In this document: one piece after another, positions 24,434-49,631 of the stretch
Layout of the letters: each line of letters begins with the position of its first letter
Position numbering within the stretch: the first letter of the stretch is position 1
DNA from: Crocinitomicaceae bacterium
Lineage (GTDB): Bacteria > Bacteroidota > Bacteroidia > Flavobacteriales_G > Salibacteraceae
Length of the DNA stretch: 64,000 bases
Direction: 5' to 3'
NCBI GenBank assembly: GCA_002713215.1
Contig: PAVO01000005.1
Span: forward strand, 208,777 to 272,776
Notes under the pieces: model-generated
Seen by the model: only the letters and a program-made list of their open reading frames with translations
The model's database searches: none
What the model was told of the DNA's origin: nothing
Made by a program: the position numbers and the translations under genes

Positions 24434-24461
24434 ATTTAACATAATATTAATTATAGGACAA
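24434..24461 (-). other. dif-like site S1, left boundary of the island
   Basis: On the minus strand this reads TTGTCCTATAA, then TTAATA, then TTATGTTAAAT: 11-6-11, the geometry of a XerC/XerD site. The last 11 bases equal the XerD-binding half of the E. coli dif site as I recall it. It lies 133 bp after the last backbone gene. Confidence 0.6.
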
Positions 24462-24536
24462 AAGGGCTAGTTTTAATATATAGGGCTATGGTTCAAGTTT
24501 TGGTCAAATATTGAATTCTCAGACGCTTTAAATGTT

Positions 24537-24743
24537 TGTACCTATAATGTATATTATGTCTGCACTCATTCTTCGTTTGCTTTCGCCTTGATCGCTCAAG
24601 TAAATAGCTCGCACTTGCCAACGCTCTTACTAGATTTAAAATTTACGTCCTGTAGTACAATTATTTCTAAATATGCGATTCTCGTTAAATCTAGATTTCG
24701 TCTCCGTAGAATGTTTGTCCTATAATTAGACATTATATTAAGT
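24537..24743 (+). other. 207-bp module bounded by two dif-like sites (copy A)
   Basis: Site S2 (24537-24564) reads TGTACCTATAA, TGTATA, TTATGTCTGCA. Its central hexamer equals that of E. coli dif. Site S3 (24715-24743) reads TTGTCCTATAA, TTAGACA, TTATATTAAGT, with a 7-bp centre. The distance from the start of S2 to the end of S3 is 207 bp, exactly as in the other two copies. Confidence 0.6.
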
Positions 24744-25394
24744 AGCCGCTCACTTTGCGTTTTTATTCAGAATTCTTCTGAGGTTTGCTTTCATTCTAAT
24801 AATGGAATTTCCGACAAGCTTTTGCCGACGCGCTCTCAAGGTTTTGTTTTCAAATTTGAAATACTACTAAATTTTAAGTTTTAAAAAATCTCTTTCTCAA
24901 ATGGCCGACGCTCACAAGAGTATTTGCAAATTCGCTGCGCTCAGTTAGCAATACACTTGCCTTTGCCTACGCACTTTTAGATTGTGCTAATTATTATGTT
25001 AAGAAGAATTGATTTGAATTGGATTTCTATTCTTCTACGCTCGTTTTGTCTTGATACAAAAGAGCCAAAAAATCAAGGCTGAAATTTCTTTCGGTTAAAG
25101 CCACGCTCAGAATAATCCGGCGCAGGTAAACTCGCTGCGCTCAGACATACCTGCTTTCAAAGGCCTGCGCTATTATTCTTCGCTGCTTTGAAACCTCAAT
25201 AAATTAAGGCCGAACCACTACCCTATAAATTTTACATAAATGAATTTTCTATTACCTTCATCAGAACTAATATTCTTTTGTTTAATTGCCATAGTTATGA
25301 TCTAAGCATTGATTATATCTTATTGAATACAAGGCCAGACCGACCTTAGGAATAGTTTTAAGTAAATACTAATTATTTATAAGTATAAACATTA

Positions 25395-25402
25395 TATGTT
25401 TG
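25395..25402 (+). promoter_or_regulatory. Bacteroidota -7 promoter element before the esterase gene
   Basis: TATGTTTG is an exact TAnnTTTG match, 20 nt before the ATG at 25423. No clear -33 element. Confidence 0.35.
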
Positions 25403-25422
25403 TACTTATAATATACAAACAG

Positions 25423-26154
25423 ATGAACAAGGCTATATTTCTGCTCTTAATAATAACAACAATGTCGAACTCAAATATCTTATTTGGACAATCAGATCAA
25501 TTAATTACAACTCTTTCAGTAAGTCATTTGGTGCAATATCCAAAAGGGTACTCGCCTACTGAAAAAGATAAAAAATACCCTTTAATAATTGCATTGCATG
25601 GGCACGGTAGTAATGAAAAGGACTTAATTGGGTTGGCTCAACACTTGCCCAACAATTATTTATGGATTAGTGGTCGTGGACCGCATACTTTCGGGCAAAA
25701 CTCATACGATTGGTATGAAGTAACGCAAATGGGAACTCCAGACCCTGATAGAATTGCAACAGCATTAAAAACCCTAGATTTATTTATTGAAGAACTGATA
25801 AAAAATTACCCTGTAGATCCAACTCAAATTTACTTACTAGGCTTTAGCCAAGGAAGCATGATTTCAATGTCTTACCTCTTGGCGTACCCTAACAGAATAG
25901 CTGGAGTAATAGCACAGTCAGGGTACATTCCTCCGAACATTGGGGTAGAAATCGATAAAGATGGAGTAACAGGAAAACCCATTATTATAACTCATGGTTT
26001 ACAGGATCCAAATATGCCTATTTCTTGGGGACAAAAAAACAGAGACACTTTTAGAAAATTAGGGGCGAATGTAGAGTACCATGAGTTTCTTATGGGGCAT
26101 TCAATAAGCAATGAATCCCTTCAAGCGATTAAGGATTGGTTAGAGAAATTATAG
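25423..26154 (+). CDS. Exported carboxylesterase/phospholipase family alpha/beta hydrolase
   Basis: About 243 aa from the ATG at 25423 (MNKAIFLLL), which gives a signal peptide ending near LFGQ; the frame is open to 25396. The catalytic triad is visible: Ser in GFSQGS, Asp in THGLQDP and His in MGHSIS. LIALHGHGSNEKDL forms the oxyanion strand. The family (YpfH/acyl-protein-thioesterase type) cleaves carboxylic esters. It heads the plus-strand cargo of island unit 1, whose sequence is visibly richer in A+T than the flanking backbone. Confidence 0.82.
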   Translation: MNKAIFLLLIITTMSNSNILFGQSDQLITTLSVSHLVQYPKGYSPTEKDKKYPLIIALHGHGSNEKDLIGLAQHLPNNYLWISGRGPHTFGQNSYDWYEVTQMGTPDPDRIATALKTLDLFIEELIKNYPVDPTQIYLLGFSQGSMISMSYLLAYPNRIAGVIAQSGYIPPNIGVEIDKDGVTGKPIIITHGLQDPNMPISWGQKNRDTFRKLGANVEYHEFLMGHSISNESLQAIKDWLEKL

Positions 26155-26162
26155 TAACCGAT

Positions 26163-26951
26163 ATGAAGAAGGCAACTGGAATATTAACATTATTAATTGT
26201 GCTGGCTGTAACAGTCCTTGCTCAAAAAAATAAAAAGCAAAAAATGAATATAGAAAAAGTTAAAATTGAGATTTGGAGTGATGTTGTTTGCCCTTTCTGT
26301 TTTATAGGAAAGAAAAAAATGGAACAAGCAATTACTAATTTAAACGCAAATGACAGGGTAGAAGTTATTTGGCATAGCTTTCAATTGGCCCCTGATTTCC
26401 CGAAAGACACTTCCCTACCCTCAACAAAATATCTTTCTGAAAAGAAAGGCTACCCTGTGAAACAAATCAAAGCAATGTATGACCAGCTGGCTCATCAAGG
26501 AAAAGAATATGGAATAGATTTTCAGTTTGACAACGCTCTTTCGTTTAACACTTTAGGAGTTCACAGACTGATACAATGGGCTAAAACGGTAAATAAATCT
26601 ACTGAACTTAAAGAAGGATTTATGTTGGCATATTTTACAGATGGAATTGACTTATCTCAACATGAAAATGTTTTGAAAGTAGTTGAAAAGATTGGCTTAG
26701 ATACTACAAAAGCTAAAGAAATTCTTAACTCCGATGAATATATGCAACAAGTAGAACAAGACATTTATCAGTCACAACAATTAGGAATTAGAGGTGTCCC
26801 TTATTTCCTAATCAATGAAAAGGAAGTGATTTCAGGTGCTCAAAGTGACGAAGTTTTCGAAAACGTATTGCGTGCTGCTTTAAGTAAAATTGAATCAAAA
26901 GAAACTAGTTCTCAACAAGGAATTTGCCTGCCAAACGGAGAATGTAAATGA
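26163..26951 (+). CDS. DsbA-family (FrnE-like) thiol oxidoreductase
   Basis: About 262 aa from the ATG at 26163. A hydrophobic N-terminus (ATGILTLLIVLAVTVLAQ) precedes the FrnE-type thioredoxin fold, which begins IEIWSDVVCPFCFIGKKK; the active site is CPFC. The insertion contains FNTLGVHRLIQWA and the cis-Pro loop is GIRGVPYF. FrnE-type proteins are usually cytoplasmic, so the apparent signal peptide is unusual. The gene overlaps the next one by 4 bp (ATGA), showing translational coupling with a peroxiredoxin-like protein. Confidence 0.85.
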   Translation: MKKATGILTLLIVLAVTVLAQKNKKQKMNIEKVKIEIWSDVVCPFCFIGKKKMEQAITNLNANDRVEVIWHSFQLAPDFPKDTSLPSTKYLSEKKGYPVKQIKAMYDQLAHQGKEYGIDFQFDNALSFNTLGVHRLIQWAKTVNKSTELKEGFMLAYFTDGIDLSQHENVLKVVEKIGLDTTKAKEILNSDEYMQQVEQDIYQSQQLGIRGVPYFLINEKEVISGAQSDEVFENVLRAALSKIESKETSSQQGICLPNGECK

Positions 26952-27487
26952 AAACAGTAAATGATTGCAATGGTTTAATGATTGGAGACAAAGTGAAGGA
27001 CTTTAGCTCTATAGACCAGAATGGCGATAAAATTCAATTGTCTGATTTACTCAAAAAAGGCAAAGTAGTAATTGTTTTTTACAGAGGACAATGGTGCCCT
27101 GTTTGCAAACCACATTTAAAAAAGCTACAAAACAGTCTTGAGGAAATTAAAAATAAGAGAGCAACAATTTTATTGATAACTCCTGAAAAACAAGAAAATA
27201 TTAAAAAAACGATTTTAAAAACAAACATCACGATACCTGTATTATATGATAACGATTATAAAATAATGGAGCAGTTTGATTTGGCATTTTTACCTAGTAA
27301 AGGGCTTAGAATTATGTACAATAGCTTGTTAATGGCTAATCTTAAAAATGCACAATCGGATGATTCACAAACCCTGCCTGTTCCTGCAACTTATGTAATT
27401 GAGCAAGATGGTACTGTAAAATGGCGACACTTCGATCGTAATTACGCTAAGAGAGCAAATACTAGAGATATTTTAAACCAACTATAA
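26948..27487 (+). CDS. Peroxiredoxin-like (AhpC/TSA) protein
   Basis: The 179-aa protein has a thioredoxin fold with IVFYRGQWCPVCKPHLKKL, a CxxC in place of the usual single peroxidatic Cys of AhpC. It ends with PATYVIEQDGTVKWRHFDRNYAKR. Such proteins reduce peroxides using thiols. It overlaps the DsbA-like gene and probably uses its reducing power or shares its redox role. No signal peptide. Confidence 0.82.
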   Translation: MKTVNDCNGLMIGDKVKDFSSIDQNGDKIQLSDLLKKGKVVIVFYRGQWCPVCKPHLKKLQNSLEEIKNKRATILLITPEKQENIKKTILKTNITIPVLYDNDYKIMEQFDLAFLPSKGLRIMYNSLLMANLKNAQSDDSQTLPVPATYVIEQDGTVKWRHFDRNYAKRANTRDILNQL

Positions 27488-27535
27488 ATTATTGTTTAAT
27501 CCGTGCTGATAAATTCAGACACAAAAATGAGAATC

Positions 27536-27772
27536 ATGAGCAAAGCAAAAATTGCACAAAAAATGCCTTACGTTATTGAAGAAAAAGCTGGTAAAAAATA
27601 CTGGTGTGCCTGTGGAGAAAGTAAGAACCAACCCTATTGCGATGGTTCACATAAAGAAACTGATTTTGTACCTATAGAAGTGGAGTTAACAGAAGATAAA
27701 AAAGTAGCCTGGTGTGGCTGTAAACATTCTGCCAATGGAGCTTTTTGCGATGGTACACATTCTAAATTATAA
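27536..27772 (+). CDS. Dual CDGSH iron-sulfur domain protein
   Basis: About 78 aa from the ATG at 27536 (MSKAKIAQKMPYVIEEKAG); ATG 27527 and GTG 27503 are upstream alternatives. Two CDGSH modules are present: CACGESKNQPYCDGSH and CGCKHSANGAFCDGTH. Each should bind a 2Fe-2S cluster through three Cys and one His. These small proteins act in iron, redox or electron-transfer homeostasis. It is part of the redox gene series of island unit 1. Confidence 0.88.
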   Translation: MSKAKIAQKMPYVIEEKAGKKYWCACGESKNQPYCDGSHKETDFVPIEVELTEDKKVAWCGCKHSANGAFCDGTHSKL

Positions 27773-27807
27773 AATTCAATTATTAACAAATAAATTAAAA
27801 TCATAAC

Positions 27808-28437
27808 ATGAAAAAAACAATTATTTTAAGTGCCCTAGCAATTGGATTATTCGCTTGTGGAACGTCAAACAAAAAAGAAGTAAAAGCAGAAGCATCTAAT
27901 GAAGTAGTAGCTACTGAAACTGTACCAACAAGTTACATTATTGATGTAGAAAAATCTGTTGTAAGTTGGAAAGGAAGTATGATTGGGGTTTATGCCCATG
28001 AAGGCGATCTTAAACTTTCCAAAGGGTCACTAACAACTGCTGATGGGCTAATTACTGATGGAGAATTTGCAGTAGACATGAATTCTATGGTAACAACCGA
28101 TGATGATGCACTTTATCAGATGGCTCCAAGAGAAAAATTAATTGGACATCTAAAATCACCTGACTTTTTTGATACAGAACAATTCCCTGTAGGAAATTTT
28201 AAAATTAAAAGCGTCAATGGTGATGTAATAACGGGAGATTTAACCATAAAAGGAGTTGTTAAAAAAGCAACTATAAATGCGATTACTCTTACAGAAACAA
28301 ACGGAAATATTTCTGCAACTGGAGCTCTTGTGTTTAACAGACAAGACTATGGTATTACTTACAAAAACACAATGAACGACATGGTATTGTCTGATGATGT
28401 TGAATTAACAATAAGTATTGAAGGAGTATCTAAATAG
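27808..28437 (+). CDS. YceI family lipoprotein
   Basis: The 209-aa protein has a lipobox (LFACG, Cys17) and a YceI lipocalin-like domain: SYIIDVEKSVVSWKGSM, GEFAVDMNSMV, LKSPDFFDTEQFPVGNFKI and TGDLTIKGVVKKA are characteristic. YceI proteins bind isoprenoid-type lipids such as polyprenols or quinone precursors in the periplasm. Its neighbours (DoxX, SDR, MarR) are a common Bacteroidota combination. Confidence 0.9.
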   Translation: MKKTIILSALAIGLFACGTSNKKEVKAEASNEVVATETVPTSYIIDVEKSVVSWKGSMIGVYAHEGDLKLSKGSLTTADGLITDGEFAVDMNSMVTTDDDALYQMAPREKLIGHLKSPDFFDTEQFPVGNFKIKSVNGDVITGDLTIKGVVKKATINAITLTETNGNISATGALVFNRQDYGITYKNTMNDMVLSDDVELTISIEGVSK

Positions 28438-28554
28438 ACGATAAAGCTTTCAATAGTTAGTTAAGAAATGATTCAGATAGTTAAAACTAATTTGAAAAGG
28501 AAAACTTTTTAGTCGGAGTATTTACAGCAAATATCAAATAAATAGAGAATAATT

Positions 28555-28926
28555 ATGGAAACACAAGAAATGAGTAAAGGAAGAAAAATAACAGGATGGG
28601 TAGTAGCTGGTTTAATTACCGCAATGCTACTGTTTAGTGCTATGGGTAAATTTACGATGCCTGAAATGGCGGATAATTTTGCTAAATGGGGATTGGCCGA
28701 ATGGATGACTATAATTGCAATCGGAGAGATAATATCTACTATTCTATTCATCATACCCAAAACAAACATATTTGGCGCATTTTTACTAAGTGCCCACATG
28801 GGTGGTGCTATTGTTACGCACATGAGTAACGGAGAGCCTTTTATTGCTCAGTCGGTGATTTTGGTTTTGGTTTGGACGGCTGCTTTTGTTCGCAACCCAG
28901 AATTACTTATAAAGTTTAATAGTTAG
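28555..28926 (+). CDS. DoxX family membrane protein
   Basis: The 123-aa protein has four membrane helices, with VAGLITAMLLFSAMGKF, EMADNFAKWG and FLLSAHMGGAIVTHM typical of DoxX-like proteins. The family includes quinone-linked oxidoreductase partners. It lies in the redox gene series, just upstream of the NmrA-like gene. Confidence 0.85.
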   Translation: METQEMSKGRKITGWVVAGLITAMLLFSAMGKFTMPEMADNFAKWGLAEWMTIIAIGEIISTILFIIPKTNIFGAFLLSAHMGGAIVTHMSNGEPFIAQSVILVLVWTAAFVRNPELLIKFNS

Positions 28927-28949
28927 AGACATTAATGACTGTAGCCCTT

Positions 28950-29618
28950 ATGAAAAAAGAAATTAAAATTTCCGTTATTGGAGCGAACGGCAGGACAGGA
29001 ATTGAAATAGTTTCTCAAGCATTAAAAATGGGAATGACTGTCAAGGCTCTGGTCAGAAATAAAAACACAATCCCTTTTAGAGATATTAATCTTCAAATTA
29101 TAGAAGGTACGCCTTTGAAGGCCGAAGATATTGATGAAGTACTCAAAGGCACGGTTGCCGTATTTGTTGCTCTAAATATCAGTAGAAAATCGGACTTTCC
29201 TTGGTCTAAAGTAATAACCCCAACGAATTTATTGGAAGTTAGCATGGACAATATAGTGTCTTCTATGCAAAAACAAAACATAAAAAGAGTGCTTACTGTT
29301 TCAGCATGGGGTGTAGGCAATAGTTATAAGGAATTGGACTTTATGTTTCGGTTTTTAATAAACCAAACTAACGTAGGTACAGCTTATCAGGCTCATGAAG
29401 AACAAGAGGAAATCCTTAGAAACAGTATCACGGATTGGACAGCAATAAGGCCTGTAGGATTAGGGAATGGAACAATACATCAAAATATTCGCGTAAGCAT
29501 AAATGGGAATAAAAAATTGCGAATGGGAATAAGTAGAAAAGAAGTCGCCAAATTTATGCTCGATATTGTTGATGACGAGGAGTATTTCAAGACTTGCCCT
29601 AGTATATCAAACGATTAA
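28950..29618 (+). CDS. NAD(P)-binding SDR/NmrA-like protein
   Basis: About 222 aa from the ATG at 28950 (MKKEIKISVIGANGRTG); ATG 28935 is a possible alternative. It has a Rossmann fold with the GANGRTG nucleotide loop, AVFVALN, and RVLTVSAWGVGNSY. It lacks the YxxxK motif of classical SDRs and so resembles atypical NmrA/quinone-reductase-like members. It probably binds NAD(P)(H) and may act on quinones. Confidence 0.82.
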   Translation: MKKEIKISVIGANGRTGIEIVSQALKMGMTVKALVRNKNTIPFRDINLQIIEGTPLKAEDIDEVLKGTVAVFVALNISRKSDFPWSKVITPTNLLEVSMDNIVSSMQKQNIKRVLTVSAWGVGNSYKELDFMFRFLINQTNVGTAYQAHEEQEEILRNSITDWTAIRPVGLGNGTIHQNIRVSINGNKKLRMGISRKEVAKFMLDIVDDEEYFKTCPSISND

Positions 29619-29619
29619 A

Positions 29620-29748
29620 ATGAAATACAATGACCTTATTTTATTGTTAGTTGTTTGCTTAATCTCTTGTTTTAAAGAATCAATTAATGAAAAGCAAAAC
29701 AACATAGAAGGAGAGGAACTAAAGATTTTAAGACTATTACAACTGTAA
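29620..29748 (+). CDS. Very small putative lipoprotein
   Basis: This 42-aa frame starts at an ATG 2 bp after the preceding stop. It has a hydrophobic N-terminus and a lipobox (CLISCF), followed by a short polar tail. It may be real and coupled to the gene before it, or a remnant of a longer gene. No family. Confidence 0.4.
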   Translation: MKYNDLILLLVVCLISCFKESINEKQNNIEGEELKILRLLQL

Positions 29749-29796
29749 GCCCTACTTTAAGTAGGCTTAAGCTCTTACTAAAAAAACGCAAAAAAA

Positions 29797-30489
29797 TTGA
29801 AACTTGTATTTAACATTATAGGAATAGTTTTCTTGTTTATATCGAATTCTACATGGTGTCAAGAAATAAAGACAACTAATGATATTGGACTTTGGGCAGG
29901 TGTTGGGGGCAATTTTAAACTCAATAAAAAATGGAAGACATCTTTTAATCAGGAAATACGAACATTTAATAATGCTATCAAAATCAAAAAATCAATCACA
30001 GAACTTGGGCTGACCCACAAATTCGACAAACAATTGAAATTATCATTAGGTGTTAGGTACTCCTATGCCCGTAAGAGAGACTACACATTTGTCAATAACA
30101 TAAGATACAATATAGATATTAAATATTGGTGTAAACTGAGTAAGCATCTGAATTTACTCTATCGTTTCAGATATCAACATAGTTATATTAACCTATTTGC
30201 AAATACCACCCCCGACATAGAAAATAGATCAAGTATGAGAAACCGAATAAAACTTCAATATCCAATAAATAAACATGCTATATATATATCAGCCGAATTA
30301 TTTCGTGAATATGTTATCTACAAAAAGCCCTCATTTAATAAAGTTAGGTTGAATATCGGTGATAAATTAAAAACAAATTTAGGAGATGTTAAATATGGAC
30401 TAGCCTTTGAACGAGAACTGAATAACTCATATCCTTTAAACTATATTATCCTGAAAATTAACTATAGTTTCAACTTCAAGCATGGCTAA
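29797..30489 (+). CDS. DUF2490 family outer-membrane beta-barrel protein
   Basis: 230 aa from a TTG start (no in-frame ATG nearby). Signal peptide (MKLVFNIIGIVFLFISNSTWCQE), then GLWAGVGGNFKLNKKWKTSFNQEIR and alternating strands up to the final KINYSFNFK, which ends in an aromatic residue near the C-terminus as barrels do. DUF2490 proteins are predicted small barrels of unknown role. It overlaps the CotH gene by 8 bp, indicating coupling. Confidence 0.75.
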   Translation: MKLVFNIIGIVFLFISNSTWCQEIKTTNDIGLWAGVGGNFKLNKKWKTSFNQEIRTFNNAIKIKKSITELGLTHKFDKQLKLSLGVRYSYARKRDYTFVNNIRYNIDIKYWCKLSKHLNLLYRFRYQHSYINLFANTTPDIENRSSMRNRIKLQYPINKHAIYISAELFREYVIYKKPSFNKVRLNIGDKLKTNLGDVKYGLAFERELNNSYPLNYIILKINYSFNFKHG

Positions 30490-31960: not shown

Positions 31961-32021
31961 TATATTTTGACCTTATAGAAATGCAAATGTTCGAATATTT
32001 TGAGCAACGTGTATTTGATAA

Positions 32022-32507
32022 ATGATTAATTATTATACATATTCGGAAGAACGACTCGTTTTTGCAAGTACTGCGTTAGTATGGGATTTATTAAGTAATT
32101 GTGATTATCTGTCTAAATGGATGCCATACATTATAAGTGTCGAACATCTAGGTAGTACCAAACTAAATAAAGGATCCATTCTCTGGGTAGAGTCCTCACA
32201 TGAAAGAGATAAAAAACAGTCACTTTGCTATATTTCAGAGTGTACAGCAAATGAAATGATTTCCTTTTTGTCTTACCAAAATGAAACAAAAGTTTGCTTC
32301 AGATTTCAAATAAGTGCTGAGAACATAGGCTTGGTCAAAATATTAATGACAGTGGAAATTGAATTGAAATGGTATAGGCACATTTTGTTTAGACGTAATT
32401 TCGTTAATTCAATTAAAGACTATGGATTCACGCAACTTAATGAATTAGATATAGCTATTACAGAGCACAGAAGTCAGCATATTAATGATAGAAAATTTCA
32501 AGAATAA
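32022..32507 (+). CDS. SRPBCC family protein
   Basis: The 161-aa protein has the START-like helix-grip pattern: YSEERLVFASTALVWDLLSNCDYLSKWMPYIISVEHLG, ILWVESS and the long C-terminal helix FVNSIKDYGFTQLNEL. Such domains bind hydrophobic ligands. It overlaps the MarR gene at TAATG by 1 bp, so the two are coupled. Confidence 0.75.
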   Translation: MINYYTYSEERLVFASTALVWDLLSNCDYLSKWMPYIISVEHLGSTKLNKGSILWVESSHERDKKQSLCYISECTANEMISFLSYQNETKVCFRFQISAENIGLVKILMTVEIELKWYRHILFRRNFVNSIKDYGFTQLNELDIAITEHRSQHINDRKFQE

Positions 32508-33855: not shown

Positions 33856-34099
33856 CTTATTCCGATCATGTAAATGTAAAGTCATTGGATCATGCTCATT
33901 ATCTGTACCTAAAGAGCAAGGATAACTCATTATCTATATGTAACTACCTTTTAGAACAATACTATCTCTGGTTATCCGCTTCTTAAATTATGAATTTTAT
34001 GAGTTTAAGAGTACCTTTTTTCAATAGACCATTTTTCTTAGCTGATTTTGCACCTCAATTTCTGTTTCATAGATGGGGTTTTCTCATATTGGAAATAGG

Positions 34100-34750: not shown

Positions 34751-34811
34751 TTTATTATTTTGCTATTTAATTCTTCTGAATATTGAATTCTTATTATTAT
34801 CAACTAAGTGT

Positions 34812-35396: not shown

Positions 35397-35426
35397 ATAC
35401 TTATAGACTAATTTGGTTTAATAGTA

Positions 35427-35434
35427 CAAATATA
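35427..35434 (-). promoter_or_regulatory. Bacteroidota -7 promoter element of the tetR gene
   Basis: The minus strand reads TATATTTG, an exact TAnnTTTG, about 30 nt before the ATG at 35396. Confidence 0.4.
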
Positions 35435-39314: not shown

Positions 39315-39331
39315 TTTAATTCGCTTTAATA

Positions 39332-42300: not shown

Positions 42301-43702
42301 CTTGTAATGCGAGAATTGGTATAAAAACAATAAGAATAATGAGTTGCCCAAAAAATGCAGAGTTCATCATTTTGCTTGAAGCGGTAAATGCAACTTCGTT
42401 TCGAACTTCTTTAGTAACTGTTTGCTTTTTCAATAATTTGTCGTGAAGCAAAAAGACGGTTCCTTCAACTATTATAACCGCCCCGTCCACAATAATGCCG
42501 AAGTCAATAGCACCTAGGCTCATCAGGTTAGCCCAAACGTCAAACACATTCATCATTATAAATGCAAATAGCAAGGAAAGCGGAATCGTAGATGCCACAA
42601 TGACTCCTCCTCTCCAATTTCCAAGTAGAAAAACCAAAACAAAAATCACTATTAAAGCACCTTCCATTAAGTTGTTACTAACCGTACCAGTGGTTTTTGC
42701 AATCAGTTTACTTCGGTCTAACAAGGGCTCAATAATCACCCCATCAGGTAAGGATTTTTGAATCTCTTTCATGCGCTCTTTTACGCTTTCAATCACCTCA
42801 TTTGAGTTTGCCCCTTTTAGCATCATTACCAAGCCTCCAACTACTTCGCCTTCTCCATCTTGGGTCAAAGCACCATATCGAATAGCCTTTCCATACTGCA
42901 CTTTTGCTACATCTTTGACTCGAATAGGTAAGCCATTAACGTTTTTAACCAACATGTTTTCAATTTCCTTTAAGTTTCGTGCTAGGCCTTCACCCCTAAT
43001 GAAATTCGCTAAGTGATCCTTTTCAATATAAGCTCCTCCTGTGTTTTGGTTATTCTTTTCAAGAGCTTTGTAAATATCAGTAATTGTTAATCCAATTGCT
43101 TTAAGCTCGTCTGGGTTAACCGCCACTTCATATTGTTTAATATGACCACCAATGGCGTTTATTTCTACAACACCTGGCACCATGGCCATTTGTCTTCGCA
43201 CAATCCAATCTTGCATGGTTCGTAACTCAGATGGTGAATATTGTCCTTTATGATTAGAATCAACTTTCAAGGTATATTGGTAAATTTCACCTAATCCAGT
43301 TGAGATTGGTCCCATAGAAGGTTCACCAAATCCCGCTGGAATTTCTCCTTTTACTTCATTAAGTTTTTCGGCAACCAGTTGTCTGGGCAAATAAGTTCCC
43401 ATATCGTCTTCAAAAACGATGGTGACTACTGATAATCCAAAACGCGAAATAGACCTTATTTCGGTTACATCGGGCAAGTTGGCCATGGCCAATTCTACAG
43501 GATAGGTAACGAATTGCTCTATATCTTCAGTTCCTAAATTTGGAGCCTGTGTAATGACCTGCACCTGATTGTTAGTAATGTCTGGTACAGCATCGAGCGG
43601 AACTTTAGTAATACTCCAAATACCGCCAATTATAAGTGCTATAGTAAGCAACCCTATAATTAGTTTGTTCTTTATCGAGAACGATATTATTTGATTAATC
43701 AT
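39332..43702 (-). CDS. Heavy-metal RND pump (CusA/CzcA family) fused to a TolC-like outer-membrane factor
   Basis: About 1456 aa from the ATG at 43702 (MINQIISFSIKNKLIIG); the frame extends to a TTG at 43765. Residues up to about 1040 form a complete HME-RND pump with twelve helices; DFGIIVDGAVIIVE is the heavy-metal signature of TM4, and GGEFIPQLDEGDIAFHG begins the second periplasmic loop. Then comes a hydrophobic stretch resembling an internal signal peptide (VFTVMILIGGLTIF...LNAQ) and a TolC/CusC-type outer membrane efflux protein of about 380 aa. The fusion puts two parts of the tripartite pump in one chain, a plan known in Bacteroidota. Confidence 0.92.
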   Translation of the reverse strand: MINQIISFSIKNKLIIGLLTIALIIGGIWSITKVPLDAVPDITNNQVQVITQAPNLGTEDIEQFVTYPVELAMANLPDVTEIRSISRFGLSVVTIVFEDDMGTYLPRQLVAEKLNEVKGEIPAGFGEPSMGPISTGLGEIYQYTLKVDSNHKGQYSPSELRTMQDWIVRRQMAMVPGVVEINAIGGHIKQYEVAVNPDELKAIGLTITDIYKALEKNNQNTGGAYIEKDHLANFIRGEGLARNLKEIENMLVKNVNGLPIRVKDVAKVQYGKAIRYGALTQDGEGEVVGGLVMMLKGANSNEVIESVKERMKEIQKSLPDGVIIEPLLDRSKLIAKTTGTVSNNLMEGALIVIFVLVFLLGNWRGGVIVASTIPLSLLFAFIMMNVFDVWANLMSLGAIDFGIIVDGAVIIVEGTVFLLHDKLLKKQTVTKEVRNEVAFTASSKMMNSAFFGQLIILIVFIPILALQGVEGKMFKPMALTFMFAMIGVMILCLTYVPMMSAWFIRVGNINKTSWGDRFVIWLENIYEPILGKALKQGKWVVGSAVLLLGFAVFTFSRMGGEFIPQLDEGDIAFHGILKPGSSLSETIATTTLIEKTVKEKFPEVQKIVSRIGVAEVPTDPMPMDLADIFVILAPKEEWVTTDSRDKLVGLMKEELEKIPGVNYEFTQPIEMRFNELLEGVREDVAIKLYGEDINVLATKAEEISKIIAGTAGIGDMKVEATTGLPQMTVKYNRNKLAQYGLHVTDMNMLVQSAFAGGKAGVIFEGEKRFDLVVRLDEEHRKSMDDLKNLYFSLDNGLQVPIKEIADINYQLGSMQISRDNTNRRTYVGINVRGRDIKTLVEEIQQKLDAKLDLPPGYYIRYGGAFENLERATNRLQLVVPIALGLIFLLIFFALKSVKQSLMIYIAIPLATIGGIFSLWLRDMPFSISAGVGFIVLFGVAVLNGLVLISAWNELKEEGVININERIRLGAKRRIRPILLTALTDVLGFLPMAVSSSAGAEVQQPLATVVIGGMITATLLTLFVLPILYHWVENRSSITPVPNVFTVMILIGGLTIFSTDSLNAQDSKKKAISSIEDAVTYGLSNNGFVQIAKTNIELQEQGKKAAFDLGKTDFAVQYGQYNSYERDFALSINQQISFPTVYSNQKNLAKEKSEGSKIQLTATENRLKRDIRESWFQLAYLKEKEKLLLYQDKIYERLLHAASIRYETEATSYLEKAAAETRVMEIKNQLNLIASDITIQENKLRVLLNDTVAVEFLPERLAERDMNNVYDSTKLVNNPLLAYTKKQIDIANAEKSAQSAKMLPNISVGYFNQSLIGSPTEGGSIATGSDRFSGIQAGISIPLFYGSYKADIKSAKLKRQIAETNANYYSIILQGKYEQKMQEVLKFKSSLNYYKEKAVPQADLVIANAQKSFENGAINYIEYFQNLNQSIQLKFNYLNTLNGYNQAIINIEHLIGQ

Positions 43703-43884
43703 ACTTGTATTTTGTTTAATAAGCTCGTCCTTTATTTCAAGAACAAGATTTGCGGCTTTTGCCAATAATTATACTCAAGAGTGTGCCTTCAGATTGAAGG
43801 CATGAGGGATTTAAACTTTGTATTATAGAATAACATTCTCTATCAACCAGAGGTCAATAAATTCCATACAAAGCTTAAAACTGA

Positions 43885-44214
43885 CTAAGCCAATTGCGGG
43901 GGGCGCCAAATGGCATTCAGGATACCTGAAGGAAAAAAATTTTCGTATTTCGCTGGTGTTTTTTGGTTTGCAATTAAAATCGACGATGCGATGGTTGTGT
44001 ATTCATTAATTACAACAGGTACGTTGCAACAAAGGCACACGCAAAAGGGCGAGCAATGATCAGCACTTTGTGAATCATCCTCATGTTCGTGACCATCCGT
44101 AGAGTGCTCACATACATTTTCTGTGGCAATAGCTGAATGCTCAGCATCATCGCAAGGAACTCCACCTGACAAACTCAGAATTAGCGCTGATAATATGTAG
44201 CAAATGAACTTCAC
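43885..44214 (-). CDS. DUF6660 family small exported protein
   Basis: About 109 aa from a GTG at 44214, which gives the family's KFICYILSALILSLS start; the frame is open to 44253. Typical of the family are the signal peptide, a Cys/His-rich middle (HSTDGHEHEDDSQSADHCSPFCVCLCC) and the C-terminal WRPP motif. These proteins are found next to CusA-type pumps in Bacteroidota and may bind the metal in the periplasm. It is the first gene of the metal operon. Confidence 0.75.
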   Translation of the reverse strand: MKFICYILSALILSLSGGVPCDDAEHSAIATENVCEHSTDGHEHEDDSQSADHCSPFCVCLCCNVPVVINEYTTIASSILIANQKTPAKYENFFPSGILNAIWRPPQLA

Positions 44215-44247
44215 CAGGCGCAAAAGTAACAATTCATTAGACACTCC

Positions 44248-44286
44248 ACACACAACTCCTTTCGCTACTCTTCAGTCGTTACGTGT
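44248..44286 (+). repeat. 39-bp unit-end repeat, copy 2
   Basis: The second copy of the element at 35475-35513, with three mismatches. It starts just upstream of the DUF6660 gene start, at the outer edge of unit 2. Confidence 0.7.
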
Positions 44287-44364
44287 TTCGCTCAGATGAG
44301 TAAAAGAGAGAGAATTTTAAATCAACATCCTGCTAAACCGAAAAAAAACCTTTCACTAGCCTTC

Positions 44365-44380
44365 TCTTGCTGAAGCAAGA
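44365..44380. repeat. Hairpin before the unit 3 boundary site
   Basis: TCTTGCT and AGCAAGA pair around GA. The same GCTGAAGC tip is found in the hairpin at 49571-49592. Confidence 0.5.
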
Positions 44381-44399
44381 TTGGCAGAGCCAAAGTCTA

Positions 44400-44431
44400 C
44401 GTTAACATAATGCTAGTCCATTATAGGACAA
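44400..44431 (-). other. dif-like boundary site S7 (unit 2/unit 3)
   Basis: Minus strand: TTGTCCTATAA, a 10-bp centre, TTATGTTAACG. The 26 bp from the TAACATAAT part through TTATAGGA are identical to site S10 at the right end of the island. Confidence 0.5.
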
Positions 44432-44506
44432 AAGGGCTGATTTTAATATTTAGGCTATATATCGAATCTCTTACGAATATTGGATTCTAAGGCACTTAAT
44501 TCTTTT

Positions 44507-44713
44507 GTCAACTATAATGTACATTATGTCTGCACTCATTCTTCGTTTGCCTTCGCCTTGATCGCTCAGGTAAATAGTTCGCACATGCTTCCCGCGTCGC
44601 TAGGATTTGAAATTCCGTCCAGTTGTTCAGATTATTCTAAATATTGAAATCTCGTAACATTTAGATTTCGTCTTCGATTTTGGTTTGTCCTATAATTGGT
44701 CGTTATATTAAAT
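44507..44713 (+). other. 207-bp module bounded by two dif-like sites (copy C)
   Basis: Site S8 (44507-44534): GTCAACTATAA, TGTACA, TTATGTCTGCA. Site S9 (44685-44713): TTGTCCTATAA, TTGGTCG, TTATATTAAAT. Length 207 bp, as in copies A and B. Confidence 0.6.
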
Positions 44714-45150
44714 TGCCGCGCACAATTTCCTTGGCTTAGAATTTCGTATCCGTGGAATTTATTCAGGTTGATTTCAAATACGCGATTCTAAATCCTCCCG
44801 CAAAGCATTCATCTTTAACTCGTATTGGTTTGGGTTTTTCTAGGTAGCTCACTGGCATGCGTCAAATGAGCTTTGCCTAACTCCGTTTGGCTTTATTTCT
44901 CATTTGCCTGTGCTGGCATTCGCTGGCTCTATTTATCTTTCATTTCCTTTTGTCTTGAAACAAAAGAAACGAAACAAAGAAAAATTCAAGGCTGTATTTC
45001 CTTACAGGTAAAAGCTACGCTCAGCTTTTGCTTCACAAGCAAACTCACCCTTCGGGCTCAAACATGCTTGCTCGGGCTTCAAGCTTCGCTGCTTTTATCC
45101 CTTATGAAATAAGGCCAACCTGGAATCCAAATTTCTACTTAACATAATAT

Positions 45151-45471
45151 TTAGGCCTTGGATTTAATTGATCGTTGATATTGTTCTTGAAGTTCCTCTA
45201 AGTATTTAAAGCAAATATGAGCTAGGAATTTTGGTGAATCAGGAGCTATTTCAATCAGTTCTTTTGGATTTCGATAAATGAAACTAGCGTATGTATCATA
45301 CCAATCATCCTTTAATGCTTCTGGTGCTTTCATCAGTTCGCATATGATTGTGTTAATTTCAAGATGGTACTCCTCTACTCTATCTAACCCCAATTGAGCA
45401 AGGCCGTCAATTAATTGGTAGTGTTTTAAATCTTGTTGCATGAGTGCGATAACAATCTGTTTTGTGGTCAT
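45151..45471 (-). CDS. Hypothetical helical protein
   Basis: The 106-aa protein is mostly helical, with no signal peptide and no known motif (MTTKQIVIALMQQDLKHYQLIDGL at the start, YLEELQEQYQRSIKSKA at the end). Its stop codon lies 3 bp from the leader's terminal half-site, so the gene ends where the unit's leader begins. It is divergent from the XRE gene. No family recognised. Confidence 0.65.
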   Translation of the reverse strand: MTTKQIVIALMQQDLKHYQLIDGLAQLGLDRVEEYHLEINTIICELMKAPEALKDDWYDTYASFIYRNPKELIEIAPDSPKFLAHICFKYLEELQEQYQRSIKSKA

Positions 45472-45626
45472 TATTCAATGTTTTAATGGTGTTTTTATAG
45501 ATTATTCCTATACAAACATAAGTAATACCAATGTTTTTTCAAACTATTTTCATTTGTTATACCATTGTTAATATCAGTATAACCAATATTTACTAAGGAA
45601 TAACGTTGATTTGAATAAATCCTGGT

Positions 45627-45657
45627 TTTGATCACAGCGGATCGATTGTTAAGTTTG
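45627..45657 (+). promoter_or_regulatory. Strong Bacteroidota promoter of the XRE gene
   Basis: TTTG (45627-45630), 19 bp, then TAAGTTTG (45650-45657) match the -33/-7 consensus exactly. The ATG follows 4 nt after the -7 element, so the transcript should begin at or next to the start codon. Confidence 0.6.
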
Positions 45658-45661
45658 GTTC

Positions 45662-45868
45662 ATGGCAGAACGAATTAATCGCATTAAAGAAATTCTTGTT
45701 ATTCAAGGCGTTAGTCAAAAAGAACTAGCCGCTAAGCTTGGAAAGAATCCAAATACAGTTACAGCAATGTGCAATAACAAGTCTCAACCCCATTTGAAGG
45801 ATTTGAAAAAAATTGCAGAGATTTTGGACGTGGATATTCGAGAATTATTAGTACCAACTAAGAAGTAA
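45662..45868 (+). CDS. XRE/Cro-type helix-turn-helix regulator
   Basis: The 68-aa protein is a single HTH_3 domain: INRIKEILVIQGVSQKELAAKLGKNPNTVTAMCNNKSQPHLKDLKKIAEILDV. The protein has no other domain. It precedes the secreted protein and the two HEPN-like genes and is the likely regulator of this cluster. Confidence 0.88.
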   Translation: MAERINRIKEILVIQGVSQKELAAKLGKNPNTVTAMCNNKSQPHLKDLKKIAEILDVDIRELLVPTKK

Positions 45869-45912
45869 CCCCAATTTTGATTAAGTACTTATATAACCTT
45901 CAAAAATCATTT

Positions 45913-46872
45913 ATGAAATCTTTATATGTAAATCTGATATTCACCTGTTTTATTACAGCCTTCTCTGCCCTTTCAGCACAAAATCGCAACCCTGAGTTGG
46001 TTGGAGAATGGAAGTCTTACCTAAAAGACAATACCACATTTTACTACTTAAAACTTTCTTCTGATGGATCTGGAGAAAAATGTATTGGAAAAACTATCAA
46101 TGGTCGTGATACTCTTCTTAGAAATGAAATGAGTTATGTTAAAATTTTGGATTGGGGTCTCAGTGGTAAAAACTTGAATCTTCAGATTAAGCATGATCTT
46201 ATGTTTGAGCCCAATGGGAGCTATAAAATGAAGCAGAATAAAGATGGTTCTTTGACTCTAAATGGAAGTCACTTTACACTGGGATTCTTTATTTCTCATC
46301 TAAACAAGGATGCTTTTATGGGTTCAGTAACCTTTCAAAAATCGGATCAAATTGAAGGAGAGTTTGGAGTAATCCCAGATACCTGCATTTATGATATTGA
46401 CGAATTCACGTTTGAAAAGGTAGATTCAGGATCATTTCGAGCTACATATGTTGGCTTTGATGATATTATTCCATATATCTTGGGTTGTTCTTTAGGATTT
46501 GAATTTCCAAAGGAGTTTAAAGTTCCGGCTTTTGAATTAACACTTCCAGATAGTTACAAATTTGGAATACATGGAATGGGTACTAATTCATATGATGTGG
46601 GTTTTATTGATATAAGTGATACCATATCAGAGTCTGTCGTGATCATATATTTTGATTTTGATGGTGTCTCGGAGAAATCACATTCAAAAGACAAAGAAGT
46701 TACTTTGATAAACTATAAAGGGAAGAAAATATACACACATTTGAGCTGGCAAAAGAAATACGCTGGAGATGTGTTTTATAGCCCTAATATTTATTTGTCG
46801 TATAGAACTTTCAATAAGGAAAAAGAGGATGAGTTAAGAGCAATTGTTACTTCATTCAAATTCAAGGAATAA
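45913..46872 (+). CDS. Exported lipocalin-like hypothetical protein
   Basis: About 319 aa from the ATG at 45913, giving a signal peptide (MKSLYVNLIFTCFITAFSALSAQ). The N-terminal half (NPELVGEWKSYLKDNTTFYYLKLSSDGSGE) looks like a lipocalin-type beta-barrel. The C-terminal half (FKVPAFELTLPDSYKFGIHGMG...) is a second beta-rich domain. Function unknown. It lies between the XRE gene and the HEPN-like pair. Confidence 0.7.
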   Translation: MKSLYVNLIFTCFITAFSALSAQNRNPELVGEWKSYLKDNTTFYYLKLSSDGSGEKCIGKTINGRDTLLRNEMSYVKILDWGLSGKNLNLQIKHDLMFEPNGSYKMKQNKDGSLTLNGSHFTLGFFISHLNKDAFMGSVTFQKSDQIEGEFGVIPDTCIYDIDEFTFEKVDSGSFRATYVGFDDIIPYILGCSLGFEFPKEFKVPAFELTLPDSYKFGIHGMGTNSYDVGFIDISDTISESVVIIYFDFDGVSEKSHSKDKEVTLINYKGKKIYTHLSWQKKYAGDVFYSPNIYLSYRTFNKEKEDELRAIVTSFKFKE

Positions 46873-46884
46873 TGTAACCCATTA

Positions 46885-47805
46885 ATGTTGAATTATTCTC
46901 TATTTGCCCTTACTCCACAAGTAATTCCAAAGATTTTAATAGCTCTTGGTATTATTCAAAACAAAGGAATTTTAATCAAGATTGATAATACTCCAGATTA
47001 CGATATATCGGAATATCAAAGAGAGGTTGACACTGATTATTATTTCCACAACCACTGGGGATTTAAAGACCACTTTCAATCCATAGTGGACGCACACTTT
47101 AGAGAGCAATTTATATTTCACTTCGATGACTTAACAAGAGCCAGTAAAGAATTGGGTCTACCTTTTGATCATTCTAATCACACAGAATTTGTCAACCAGA
47201 TTTATTCAAGTTACCCCAAAAAACTTCCTGAATATAGCTTTTCAATTGAATGGGATGAATTTAAATTTAAAAATCTCCGTTTAGTTTCGATTGATAACAT
47301 TAAGAAAAAATTGTTCTACGAAGGTGCTTTCTTTGGCAATTCTGATACTATAACTCCTTTAGATTGGGGTGTGTATTCATTACTTAACCTCACTTGTGTC
47401 TCTTTTTCCAGATTACCTTTTTACAAGCAATTAGTGCTGGAGGGTTATCTGCTAAAAAAAGAAGGTAAATATAAACTTGCTTTCTTCCTAACATATTCTG
47501 CGTTTGAGAGTTTTGTAAACTTTAAATCAGGCACGGCTGATGATGAAGAACGGCTTAAGGAAAAAGTTACCAAGTTGTATAGAAATCAGTTCCCCAAGCT
47601 TGAAAAACACCAGATATACTGCTCTGTAATGAACCAGTATGATAAGTTTACCAACGATCGGAATAATATTGCTCATGGAACTCGTCAAATTGAGGTATCC
47701 CAGGAAGAGCTTGATTCTCTATTAATTTTCGTTTTGATAATGATTAGCTGCTATGAATTTAACTTCAAGAAATTTGATGAATTATCTGCTAAGGTCTCAT
47801 TATAG
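46885..47805 (+). CDS. HEPN-like protein 1
   Basis: The 306-aa protein has an unassigned N-terminal domain (1-185) and a helical C-terminal domain with FFLTYSAFESFVNFKSG and RNNIAHG (Arg259 to His264), the RxxxxH motif of HEPN ribonucleases and of many antiphage and toxin-antitoxin effectors. No signal peptide. It lies 12 bp after the secreted-protein gene and 15 bp before a second protein with the same type of motif. I infer a HEPN fold from the motif and helical context only. Confidence 0.6.
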   Translation: MLNYSLFALTPQVIPKILIALGIIQNKGILIKIDNTPDYDISEYQREVDTDYYFHNHWGFKDHFQSIVDAHFREQFIFHFDDLTRASKELGLPFDHSNHTEFVNQIYSSYPKKLPEYSFSIEWDEFKFKNLRLVSIDNIKKKLFYEGAFFGNSDTITPLDWGVYSLLNLTCVSFSRLPFYKQLVLEGYLLKKEGKYKLAFFLTYSAFESFVNFKSGTADDEERLKEKVTKLYRNQFPKLEKHQIYCSVMNQYDKFTNDRNNIAHGTRQIEVSQEELDSLLIFVLIMISCYEFNFKKFDELSAKVSL

Positions 47806-47820
47806 GTAGTTTTGGACAAG

Positions 47821-49317
47821 ATGGAGAAAAAGGAGGTATATTCTATTTTATTTAACAAAATAGACGAGTTTGCAGTTCCCAAGGAAGGTATTTTGGTAAA
47901 TAGAAACTCTTCTTTAGACAATTTGAATGCAGCTATATCAACTTCTGAGCATGATTTTTCCGTTTCATTCGAATGGTATCGGTTTTCAGAGAAGAGCAAA
48001 AACCTACGTGTGGGTAAATCCTACAAAAAAGTAGGTTTTCAATCGAAAAACACAAATTGGGTATTTGAAGATTTCTATATATCTAACGCTTCTAATCATG
48101 TCGACTTTATAAATCAAAAATCTTCGCACCAGCTTACGGCGTCTTCTAGATTTATTTATACCAAGGGATATTCTAAAACTGCTTTATACTACTATCGATT
48201 GCTTGTTCCATTATCTGAAGAATTTAAGACTCATTTTGTTATTGGAAGTTTAAGAGAGGTAACTATCGAAAATGACCCGTTAAAGTTTTATTTCATTCAA
48301 AGAGATAAGAAAAAGCACTTTCTGGTCATCGAATCAGACTTAAAACAACCTTATGATATATTTAGTAAAAAAGCCTTTGCCTTAAAAATTGCTCTTGGCT
48401 ATTTGACAGGACATTTAGCTGGAGATAGAGGGTTTTATTTCGCTTACACAAAAAAGAGAATGGAAACCCCTGCTCAAGTTTACCATTCACCGTTTCATCC
48501 TTCTATAATTAGCATATACAAACCTATTTGGTCTAATCCGTATGGATTCATCAGAAATGATAAGCACGCGGATAGATATTATAAAAACAAGGTGTTACGT
48601 ACGATAAAGAAGGAAGAACTTTCAACACTATGTCAAAGGCTCTACGATTCAGATGAATTTTCATCAGCTATCAATTTGATGTTGGAATCGAGTGTTGCTA
48701 GTTTGCTATTTCGGCCAGGAGGTTATGCTATTGTCTTAGAAACTTTAGCAGATATTATTAAACCTGAAAAGAAGGTTAAAGTTGCTCCCATGAAACCAGC
48801 TTTAAGTAAAAAAGTACGAAAAGAGTGTTTGAGTATAGGTGAGCAGCATTGGCAATCAATCTCTAAGCAGTTTTCAATCACCATAGAAAAATACGAAAAG
48901 GAAATATCTGCTGACTGTATTAAAGCACTCAATCAATACAAAGATTCACTTACTGAAGAAAGTTTGGAAACCCTTAAAAAAAGAATTGATGGGATAAATA
49001 AAGCGACTAATAAAGCTCAGCTAAAAAGGCCTTTTGATTATTTAAACATAATACTATCAAAAAGCGATTTAGAAATTCTTGGTACGCGAGATGACTTCTT
49101 ACACGGAAGAGTTCCTGACATAACCAAAGCAGGAAAGCAGAGACCATTGGATAGGCAAAACAGAGATCTTTATTATGCTTCCGTGAAATTCTATACACTA
49201 CTGAATATGCTTATTCTTAAATGGATAGGTTACGATAATTATGTTGTTAACTATGCCAAATACAATGAAACTTATACAAAGGTGAAATTAGATGAAGACG
49301 TTTATAAGGAAGTCTAA
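47821..49317 (+). CDS. HEPN-like protein 2 (large)
   Basis: About 498 aa from the ATG at 47821 (MEKKEVYSILFN); the frame is open to a TTG at 47812. Residues 1-280 form a beta-rich region without known motifs. The C-terminal 200 residues are helical and include ILGTRDDFLHG, an RxxxxH motif (Arg423-His428 from the ATG), followed by a long hydrophobic helix (LYYASVKFYTLLNMLILKWIGY). A large N-terminal sensor-like domain plus a C-terminal HEPN resembles ApeA-type defence proteins, but I cannot confirm homology. Confidence 0.6.
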   Translation: MEKKEVYSILFNKIDEFAVPKEGILVNRNSSLDNLNAAISTSEHDFSVSFEWYRFSEKSKNLRVGKSYKKVGFQSKNTNWVFEDFYISNASNHVDFINQKSSHQLTASSRFIYTKGYSKTALYYYRLLVPLSEEFKTHFVIGSLREVTIENDPLKFYFIQRDKKKHFLVIESDLKQPYDIFSKKAFALKIALGYLTGHLAGDRGFYFAYTKKRMETPAQVYHSPFHPSIISIYKPIWSNPYGFIRNDKHADRYYKNKVLRTIKKEELSTLCQRLYDSDEFSSAINLMLESSVASLLFRPGGYAIVLETLADIIKPEKKVKVAPMKPALSKKVRKECLSIGEQHWQSISKQFSITIEKYEKEISADCIKALNQYKDSLTEESLETLKKRIDGINKATNKAQLKRPFDYLNIILSKSDLEILGTRDDFLHGRVPDITKAGKQRPLDRQNRDLYYASVKFYTLLNMLILKWIGYDNYVVNYAKYNETYTKVKLDEDVYKEV

Positions 49318-49599
49318 TTCTCATTCTTTATCTAGGCAAAGCTTGATTTTTTTTAGCGTGCCCTTTCAGGTCGGGCTATTCGCTACTACTCCTCGCCCCT
49401 GTTGGGCTGAGGGGTAACCGCTGCTATCCCTCACGCGCTTAAATGAAAACTTTCTTTGGTCGTTCACATTTTTCGCTAATAAGCTGTAAGCAATATTTCA
49501 ATTTTCTCCTAGCGTCGTAAATATGAAACCTTGCTTGAAATGTTTAAGAAAAACCCAATCCGGCTAGCGAGGTTAAAGCTGAAGCTTTAACCCAAAGCA
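49318..49599. repeat. Unit 3 distal noncoding region
   Basis: No gene. It holds GCCCTTTCAGGTCGGGC with CGCTACTACTCC and GTGAGGG-type elements resembling dispersed Bacteroidota intergenic repeats, and a perfect hairpin GGTTAAAGCT-GA-AGCTTTAACC (49571-49592) just before site S10. The 39-bp unit-end repeat of the other units is absent here. Confidence 0.55.
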
Positions 49600-49631
49600 A
49601 AGTAACATAATGCTAGTCCATTATAGGAGAT
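49600..49631 (-). other. dif-like site S10, right boundary of the island
   Basis: Minus strand: TCCTATAA-type arm, 10-bp centre, TTATGTTACTT. Its core of 26 bp is identical to S7. The next backbone gene ends 17 bp further on, so the island stops here. No leader follows this site. Confidence 0.55.

What the first reader, a model, noticed from the sequence alone, without database searches (positions are those of the whole stretch)
24434..49631. Chromosomal island built of three units, each bounded by a dif-like site: a possible Xer-site cassette array in Bacteroidota
Seen: four same-orientation sites (24434, 35603, 44400, 49600) with one arm close to TTGTCCTATAA and the other close to TTATGTTAA. 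Between them lie three units of about 11.2, 8.8 and 5.2 kb. Each unit is leader plus cargo, the last site has no leader, and backbone genes resume 17 bp later. Each cargo is a coherent set: redox/aromatic response, metal efflux, and a putative HEPN defence cluster. Known: Acinetobacter plasmids carry pdif modules moved by host XerC/D, and integrons carry cassettes with structured sites. Inferred: these units were acquired one by one by host Xer or a related recombinase. I know of no description of this in Bacteroidota, but I cannot search.
Basis: partly seen in the sequence, partly recalled or inferred. Interest (0 to 1): 0.85.

Follow-up and report, generated by a model that had tools for sequence, protein, structure and literature searches.

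The report
Gene cassette arrays at chromosomal dif
This 25-kb island is a row of three gene cassettes that begins at the bacterium's predicted chromosome-dimer-resolution site (dif), and each cassette ends in a lengthened dif-like site; the same layout with other genes recurs in related bacteria, so the cell's own XerC/XerD enzymes likely capture foreign genes there much as an integron would, with no integrase gene inside these three cassettes.

Summary
Confirmed and extended. The four sites are real. The first (24434) equals the predicted dif of relatives (6-nt spacer); the other three, one at the far end of each unit, have 9- or 10-nt spacers. In 16 single-contig arrays that I selected (the window's family, one other family, one further genome) the first site has a 6-nt spacer in 16 of 16 and the later sites 9-11 nt in 23 of 23. 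Leaders also hold inverted dif-like sites that pair with the boundary site (18 of 23 units beat all 100 shuffles), the published layout of the CTXphi attP. Cargo differs between relatives. The window's metal-efflux unit recurs at 99.3% DNA identity in another genus with other neighbours. In 16 genomes searched, no tyrosine recombinase lies in a mapped unit; one lies just past the last mapped site of one array. Best reading: dif acts like an attI site where host XerC likely inserts cassettes through a hairpin-folded attachment site. Virus versions at dif are published; my ten paper searches listed no description of gene-cassette arrays. Complication: leaders are mosaic, so homologous recombination also acts. 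Nothing here tests the reaction itself.

The parts
24434..24461 (-). Predicted chromosomal dif, entry point of the array (TTGTCCTATAA-ttaata-TTATGTTAAAT, 6-nt spacer)
   Evidence: Identical to sites in relatives G011 and G031, near copies in others
24451..35622 (.). Unit 1 (11172 bp): leader plus redox, DsbA-like, esterase, YceI, DoxX, CotH, MarR, LigB-type dioxygenase and TetR genes
24535..24562 (+). Inverted site C of leader 1 (6-nt spacer)
24715..24743 (+). Inverted site D of leader 1 (7-nt spacer ttagaca)
35603..35633 (-). Distal site of unit 1 (9-nt spacer tgtattgca) joined to the XerC arm of leader 2
35623..44420 (.). Unit 2 (8798 bp): leader plus metal-efflux genes (cation efflux, HlyD-type, fused CusA/CzcA RND-OEP protein, DUF6660)
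35690..35747 (+). Hairpin B of leader 2, a folded Xer-like site with an asymmetric internal loop
35796..35826 (+). Inverted site C of leader 2
35979..36007 (+). Inverted site D of leader 2 (7-nt spacer tttgaca)
44400..44431 (-). Distal site of unit 2 (10-nt spacer tggactagca) joined to the XerC arm of leader 3
44421..49620 (.). Unit 3 (5200 bp): leader plus a putative defence set (weak HEPN match in 46885-47805)
44503..44533 (+). Inverted site C of leader 3
44685..44713 (+). Inverted site D of leader 3 (7-nt spacer ttggtcg)
49600..49631 (-). Distal site of unit 3 and end of the array (10-nt spacer); XerC arm ATCTCCTATAA with a flank unlike the leader flank, read as the backbone half of the original dif

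Best explanation
The island is an array of three gene cassettes that starts at the predicted chromosomal dif, and host XerC (with XerD) likely inserted each cassette there through a hairpin-folded attachment site, as it does for phage CTXphi. Shown: a 6-nt dif-type site at the dif end, 9- or 10-nt spacers at each unit's far end, inverted partner sites in each leader, and the same layout with different cargo in relatives. Inferred: a free form of each unit (a circle, single-stranded or extruded as a cruciform) folds its boundary site A (9-11-nt spacer) onto an inverted leader site (C or D); XerC swaps one strand at the edge of the XerC arm, and replication resolves the junction. The product would keep a working 6-nt dif on the leader side, so that the next unit enters there, and would leave the unit's own long spacer at its far end. 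So dif plays the part of attI and the long-spacer site that of attC. How the DNA reaches the cell is unknown. Homologous recombination between leaders would then reshuffle leaders and cargo.
For: Order rule: in 16 selected single-contig arrays the dif-side site has 6 nt in 16 of 16 and later sites 9-11 nt in 23 of 23. In family f35, scanned with spacers of 5-12 nt allowed, 67 sites fall at 6, 7, 9, 10 and 11 nt and none at 5, 8 or 12; 6-nt and 9+-nt sites on one contig share a strand in 10 of 10 pairs; 7-nt sites lie on the opposite strand in 10 of 10; reversed-pattern control 0 in 46 genomes. The boundary site pairs with an inverted leader site better than in all 100 shuffles in 18 of 23 units. 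The five arrays with no leader-like DNA within 1 kb after the last site (window, G017, G022, G073, G422) have there a XerC arm or flank unlike their leader type, as expected if it is the backbone half. Unit 2 is 99.29% identical over 8014 bp in another genus, against 84% protein identity for an 855-aa flanking gene. Whole-unit difference G207/G424. XerD and XerC are encoded. G207 has an array but only two PF00589 proteins.
Against: Leaders are mosaic: the 99% identity of unit 2 starts about 0.8 kb inside the leader, and G424's leader ahead of site D resembles neither G207 leader closely (73-86%), so a leader does not always travel with its cargo. Five of 23 units had 1, 2, 4, 13 and 19 of 100 shuffles that paired as well. 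In most units two inverted sites compete as partner. G345 has three 9-nt sites but no 6-nt site in the 40 kb fetched; no long-spacer site was found beyond the dif and leader of G011, G013 and G020 in the DNA fetched. Similar sites in tailed-phage contigs mean that ssDNA is not required by the layout. No empty dif of the window's own genus is held. No reaction was observed.
Confidence: 0.66

Rival explanations
1. Ordinary double-strand Xer modules, like the pdif modules of Acinetobacter plasmids: host XerCD recombines dsDNA circles at dif-like sites, and the inverted leader sites are incidental.
For: Sites match dif in both arms; no recombinase in mapped units; tailed dsDNA phages in IMG/VR carry dif-like sites with 6-nt spacers.
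Against: Distal spacers are 9-11 nt in 23 of 23 sites against 6 nt at the dif side; inverted partner sites pair beyond chance in 18 of 23 units.
Confidence: 0.12
2. Homologous recombination between repeated leaders and flanks moves the cargo; the dif-like sites mark where the first leader landed and are no longer used.
For: Mosaic leaders; cargo differs between conserved leader and distal end in G428 and G439.
Against: The unit 2 match in G017 ends at the distal site (the shared XerC arm and flank apart); the order rule and the backbone-type XerC arm at array ends are not predicted by it; a 543-bp unit with a short leader also obeys the rule.
Confidence: 0.13
3. A dedicated tyrosine recombinase, such as the 382-aa XerA/integron-integrase-like protein of this genome (G000:C53) or one carried by some units, moves the cassettes.
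For: The genome encodes such a protein (NF040815, 222 bits, cut-off 220); 13 of the 16 genomes searched have a PF00589 frame of 379-416 aa; G428 has a 275-aa XerA-like protein about 0.74 kb past its last mapped site.
Against: G207 has an array but only two PF00589 proteins (frames of 299 and 304 aa), and G439 has none near 385 aa among its four (317, 297, 455, 450). Both arms are dif arms.
Confidence: 0.07

Closest known systems
[quoted passage not shown]
   Same: No integrase in the element; target dif; two inverted dif-like sites, one with a long (12-bp in CTXphi) and one with a short (5-7-bp) central region, about 90 bp apart (passages of PMC4246890)
   Different: No phage genes among the proteins scanned in the units; several different gene sets in ordered arrays; long spacer 9-11 nt; leader often with extra inverted sites
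Microvirus (BMV) proviruses and PhiCjT23-like prophages of Bacteroidetes at dif
   Same: Bacteroidetes hosts; integration at dif-like sites by host Xer proposed; an extra dif-like sequence near a terminus in BMV4-6, compared there to CTXphi (passages of PMC3091885; PMC9719478)
   Different: Those are ssDNA viruses; here the cargo is bacterial accessory genes in multi-unit arrays
pdif modules of Acinetobacter
   Same: Gene modules bounded by Xer sites, no own recombinase (abstract start of PMC7399989; details recalled)
   Different: pdif sites are recalled to have 6-bp spacers and to lie on plasmids; here spacers are 9-11 nt and the array sits at the chromosomal dif
Integron cassette arrays
   Same: Ordered array growing from one entry site, a distal recombination site at each cassette's end, a hairpin-folded site (general knowledge; abstract starts)
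   Different: No intI in the array; the entry site is dif; cassettes of 0.5-13 kb with a conserved leader; sites are dif-like

Membership tests
CTXphi-type IMEX | Integrated at dif | tested here: met
   First site identical to the predicted dif of relatives; dif assigned by sequence only
CTXphi-type IMEX | Two inverted dif-like sites with unequal central regions that pair | tested here: met
   (18 of 23 units beat all shuffles)
CTXphi-type IMEX | No recombinase of its own | tested here: met
   none inside a mapped unit in 16 genomes (G107 not searched); one just past the last mapped site in G428
CTXphi-type IMEX | Integration catalysed by host XerC | not testable with these tools
   Needs an experiment; XerC and XerD are encoded
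CTXphi-type IMEX | Phage genes (the vibriophage members; the GGI and EludIMEX-1 members lack this) | tested here: not met
   No phage gene in the window units or in the relatives' proteins scanned with Pfam; not every frame was scanned
pdif module | 28-bp sites with 6-bp spacers at both ends (recalled) | tested here: not met
   Distal spacers 9-11 nt in 23 of 23
Integron | intI gene beside the array | tested here: not met
   No PF00589 match of G000 lies on the window's contig C5; the XerA/IntI-like gene is on contig C53
Integron | Ordered array from one entry site with a recombination site at each cassette end | tested here: met
Integron | attC sites | not tested
   No attC model was run; the sites match dif arms instead
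Known transposon or plasmid element | Leader or transposase matching a described element | tested here: not met
   Leader 1: no match in plasmid or phage collections. A G207 leader query gave 38 plasmid records, the 20 listed matching only its ATPase part. No transposase among the window's proteins scanned

The most novel reading that the evidence does not exclude
Many Bacteroidota run an integrase-less integron: the chromosome's own dif and XerC/XerD capture ready-made gene cassettes (0.5-13 kb; metal efflux, defence, adhesins) through hairpin-folded dif-like sites, building ordered arrays at the replication terminus that pass between genera, while phages of the same phylum use the same attachment device.
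Probability: 0.55. Interest if true: 0.92.

Novelty: new variant of a known kind. Interest (0 to 1): 0.85.

Why it matters
It would give Bacteroidota a host-driven gene-capture system that searches for integrases cannot see, and place a hotspot for metal-resistance and defence genes at dif. It would show the folded-site device of CTXphi and integrons at work on non-viral cassettes, which bears on how integrons could arise from Xer-type recombination. The conserved layout lets cassette boundaries be called to the base from sequence alone.

Tried and rejected
Chance sites: rejected. Known plasmid, phage or RNA element as leader: no match (Rfam over 19000-52000 gave only a Flavo-1 RNA at 37.2 bits, gathering score 42, at the end of unit 3, and a microRNA-family hit at E 0.55). 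Leader as a clean part of each cassette: rejected, it is mosaic. G050 as an empty dif: rejected, it has leader remnants and extra genes beside dif. G329/G422 as an insertion case: they share the unit. I first took the third site of G235 as the array's end; one search found leader-like DNA after it, so it is not counted as an end. Which inverted site (C or D) is the true partner was not settled.

Sites not counted: plus-strand dif-like matches with 9-11-nt spacers in many leaders (for example G017 6096, G146 10152, G235 9883) are one side of hairpin B, with 2-3 changes in the XerC arm; other matches with 4 mismatches were read as chance. In one search, two of 13 seven-nt sites and several of the 35 six-nt sites have odd spacers and may be chance or decayed.

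Arrays left out of the 16: G345 (three 9-nt sites, no 6-nt site in the 40 kb fetched); G177, G426, G388, G406, G420, G141, G004 and G000 C43/C3 (split over contigs or one end only); G011, G013, G020, G050 (no distal site found); genomes with dif alone. The class scan demanded spacers of 8-10 nt and so cannot test spacer length; (5-12 nt) can. In one search the leader hits after G107 and G308 are matches to their own library entries and say nothing.

Viral contigs with the 9-11-nt pattern: 36 contigs, 37 sites; 13 of 37 beat all 60 shuffles, but 8 of these 13 are one repeated sequence whose partner is not dif-like. By reading them I count L210, L211, L218, L223 and L234, and L212 by the site scan, as likely attachment sites.
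Full report
OBSERVATION. The window is bases 208777-272776 of contig C5 of a 5.03-Mb, 56-contig genome (98.92% complete, 4.39% contamination). The four sites lie on the minus strand at 24434-24461, 35603-35633, 44400-44431 and 49600-49631. Their arms are near TTGTCCTATAA (XerC side) and TTATGTTAA (XerD side); the spacers are ttaata (6), tgtattgca (9), tggactagca (10) and tggactagca (10). Six sites with at most two mismatches (three boundary sites, three inverted leader sites) were seen against a mean of 0.0 in 40 shuffles; the 49600 site has three mismatches (7 seen, shuffle mean 0.125). GC is 34.8% in the island and 39.6% and 39.2% in the 6-kb flanks. Cumulative GC skew, in 4-kb steps, peaks inside the island (28-36 kb) and falls after it, as expected near a terminus, though weakly.

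THE FIRST SITE IS THE PREDICTED DIF. The same 28 bases, TTGTCCTATAA-ttaata-TTATGTTAAAT, occur in G011 (L019, a one-contig genome) and G031 (L023), and with one arm change in G001, G014, G020 and G030. I call it dif on sequence alone. The genome encodes XerD (TIGR02225 344 bits, cut-off 329.6) and XerC (TIGR02224 332.1 bits, just under its cut-off of 335.15).

ANATOMY OF A UNIT. From the dif side: XerC arm; leader of roughly 0.7-0.9 kb; cargo; XerD arm with a 9-11-nt spacer. Leaders contain inverted dif-like sites. In the window, site C (6-nt spacer, worn XerC arm) starts 72-163 nt and site D (7-nt spacer) 254-346 nt past the boundary site. Some leaders also hold hairpin B, a folded Xer-like site with an asymmetric internal loop, found too beside dif in G001, G014, G020 and G011. 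When a unit's far end is joined in silico to its own leader, the boundary site pairs with C or D: 18 of 23 units beat all 100 dinucleotide shuffles of the leader; the other five had 1, 2, 4, 13 and 19 of 100 as good. The shortest units, G308 (543 bp, longest frame 118 aa) and G107 (744 bp, longest frame 121 aa), pair A with D.

DISTRIBUTION. A leader search matched 18 of 35 genomes of the window's family, many only at dif itself. A class-wide pattern for long-spacer sites matched 13 of 395 genomes (15 sites; reversed-pattern control 3 matches), 8 of the 13 in one other family, f35. In f35, with spacers of 5-12 nt allowed, 33 of 46 genomes matched with 67 sites: 35 of 6 nt, 13 of 7 nt, 14 of 9 nt, 3 of 10 nt, 2 of 11 nt; control 0. 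On contigs with both kinds, 6-nt and 9+-nt sites share a strand in 10 of 10 pairs, and 7-nt sites lie opposite their nearest neighbour in 10 of 10. Over 16 single-contig arrays that I selected (the window, three others of its family, eleven of f35, one of f57) the dif-side site has 6 nt in 16 of 16 and the later sites 9-11 nt in 23 of 23. Cases outside this count, and plus-strand matches read as halves of hairpin B, are listed under Tried and rejected.

MECHANISM. The order rule is what insertion at dif by XerC strand exchange predicts. The exchange point lies between XerC arm and spacer, so the dif spacer and XerD arm stay on the left, the unit's own spacer and XerD arm end up at its far end, and there follows the XerC arm of the older neighbour or, at the end of the array, of the backbone. 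Five of the 16 arrays have no leader-like DNA within 1 kb after their last site (window, G017, G022, G073, G422), and in these five the XerC arm or its flank there is unlike the leader type. A 9-11-nt central region opposite a 6- or 7-nt one suits a folded site, as reviewed for CTXphi: attP1 with 12 bp, attP2 with 5-7 bp, inverted, 90 bp apart, only XerC catalysis needed (passages of PMC4246890). The 7-nt spacers begin TTA, like most dif spacers, in 11 of 13 f35 sites and in one of the three window leaders (the others begin TTT and TTG); that review says homology next to the XerC arm decides CTXphi integration. All this is inference from sequence. The mosaic leaders show that homologous recombination also reshapes arrays. 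Three IMG/VR contigs with portal or terminase genes (L210, whose portal match is weak, L211, L212) carry the same long-spacer and inverted 7-nt sites, so the device is shared with phages and need not involve ssDNA.

KNOWN WORK. Seen as passages: PMC5357621 (review of Xer systems and IMEX), PMC4246890, PMC3091885 (microvirus proviruses of Bacteroidetes at dif-like sites, with an extra dif-like sequence near one end in three of them), PMC9719478 (PhiCjT23-like prophages of Flavobacterium at dif), PMC10973501 (not relevant). Ten searches of the open-access library listed no paper whose title or abstract start describes such gene-cassette arrays; subscription papers and preprints are not covered. 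It works like a CTXphi-type IMEX combined with an integron. I do not file it as a pdif module (spacer test failed) or as an integron (no intI beside the array). Of the IMEX features tested it lacks only phage genes.

VERDICT. A real and recurring, ordered cassette system at the predicted dif of Bacteroidota, probably driven by host XerC through folded sites. Interest 0.85; new variant of a known kind.

Noticed in passing
35690-35747; also loci L019, L025, L029, L024: Hairpin B, a folded Xer-like site with an asymmetric internal loop, also lies beside dif in G001, G014 and G020, where no unit was found; its role there is unknown.
   Followed up: partly
L078 (G000:C43:33939) and L079 (G000:C3:7039-7067): A second dif-like site with leader (spacer ttatag) near a contig end and a second distal end (9-nt spacer) in the same assembly: a second array, a second replicon or contamination.
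   Followed up: partly
L210, L211, L212, L218, L223, L234: IMG/VR contigs, three of them with portal or terminase genes, carry long-spacer dif-like sites with inverted partners; L210 has two such modules about 720 bp apart.
   Followed up: partly
49365-49444 (-): A Flavo-1 RNA-like match (37.2 bits, gathering score 42) at the distal end of unit 3; similar DNA precedes the distal site on C3.
   Followed up: no
L192:4323-5150: A 275-aa XerA-like recombinase about 0.74 kb past the last mapped site of the G428 array.
   Followed up: partly
L247:983-2131 (G000:C53): A 382-aa recombinase best matching the XerA/integron-integrase model NF040815; 13 of 16 genomes searched have a PF00589 frame of 379-416 aa.
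   Followed up: partly
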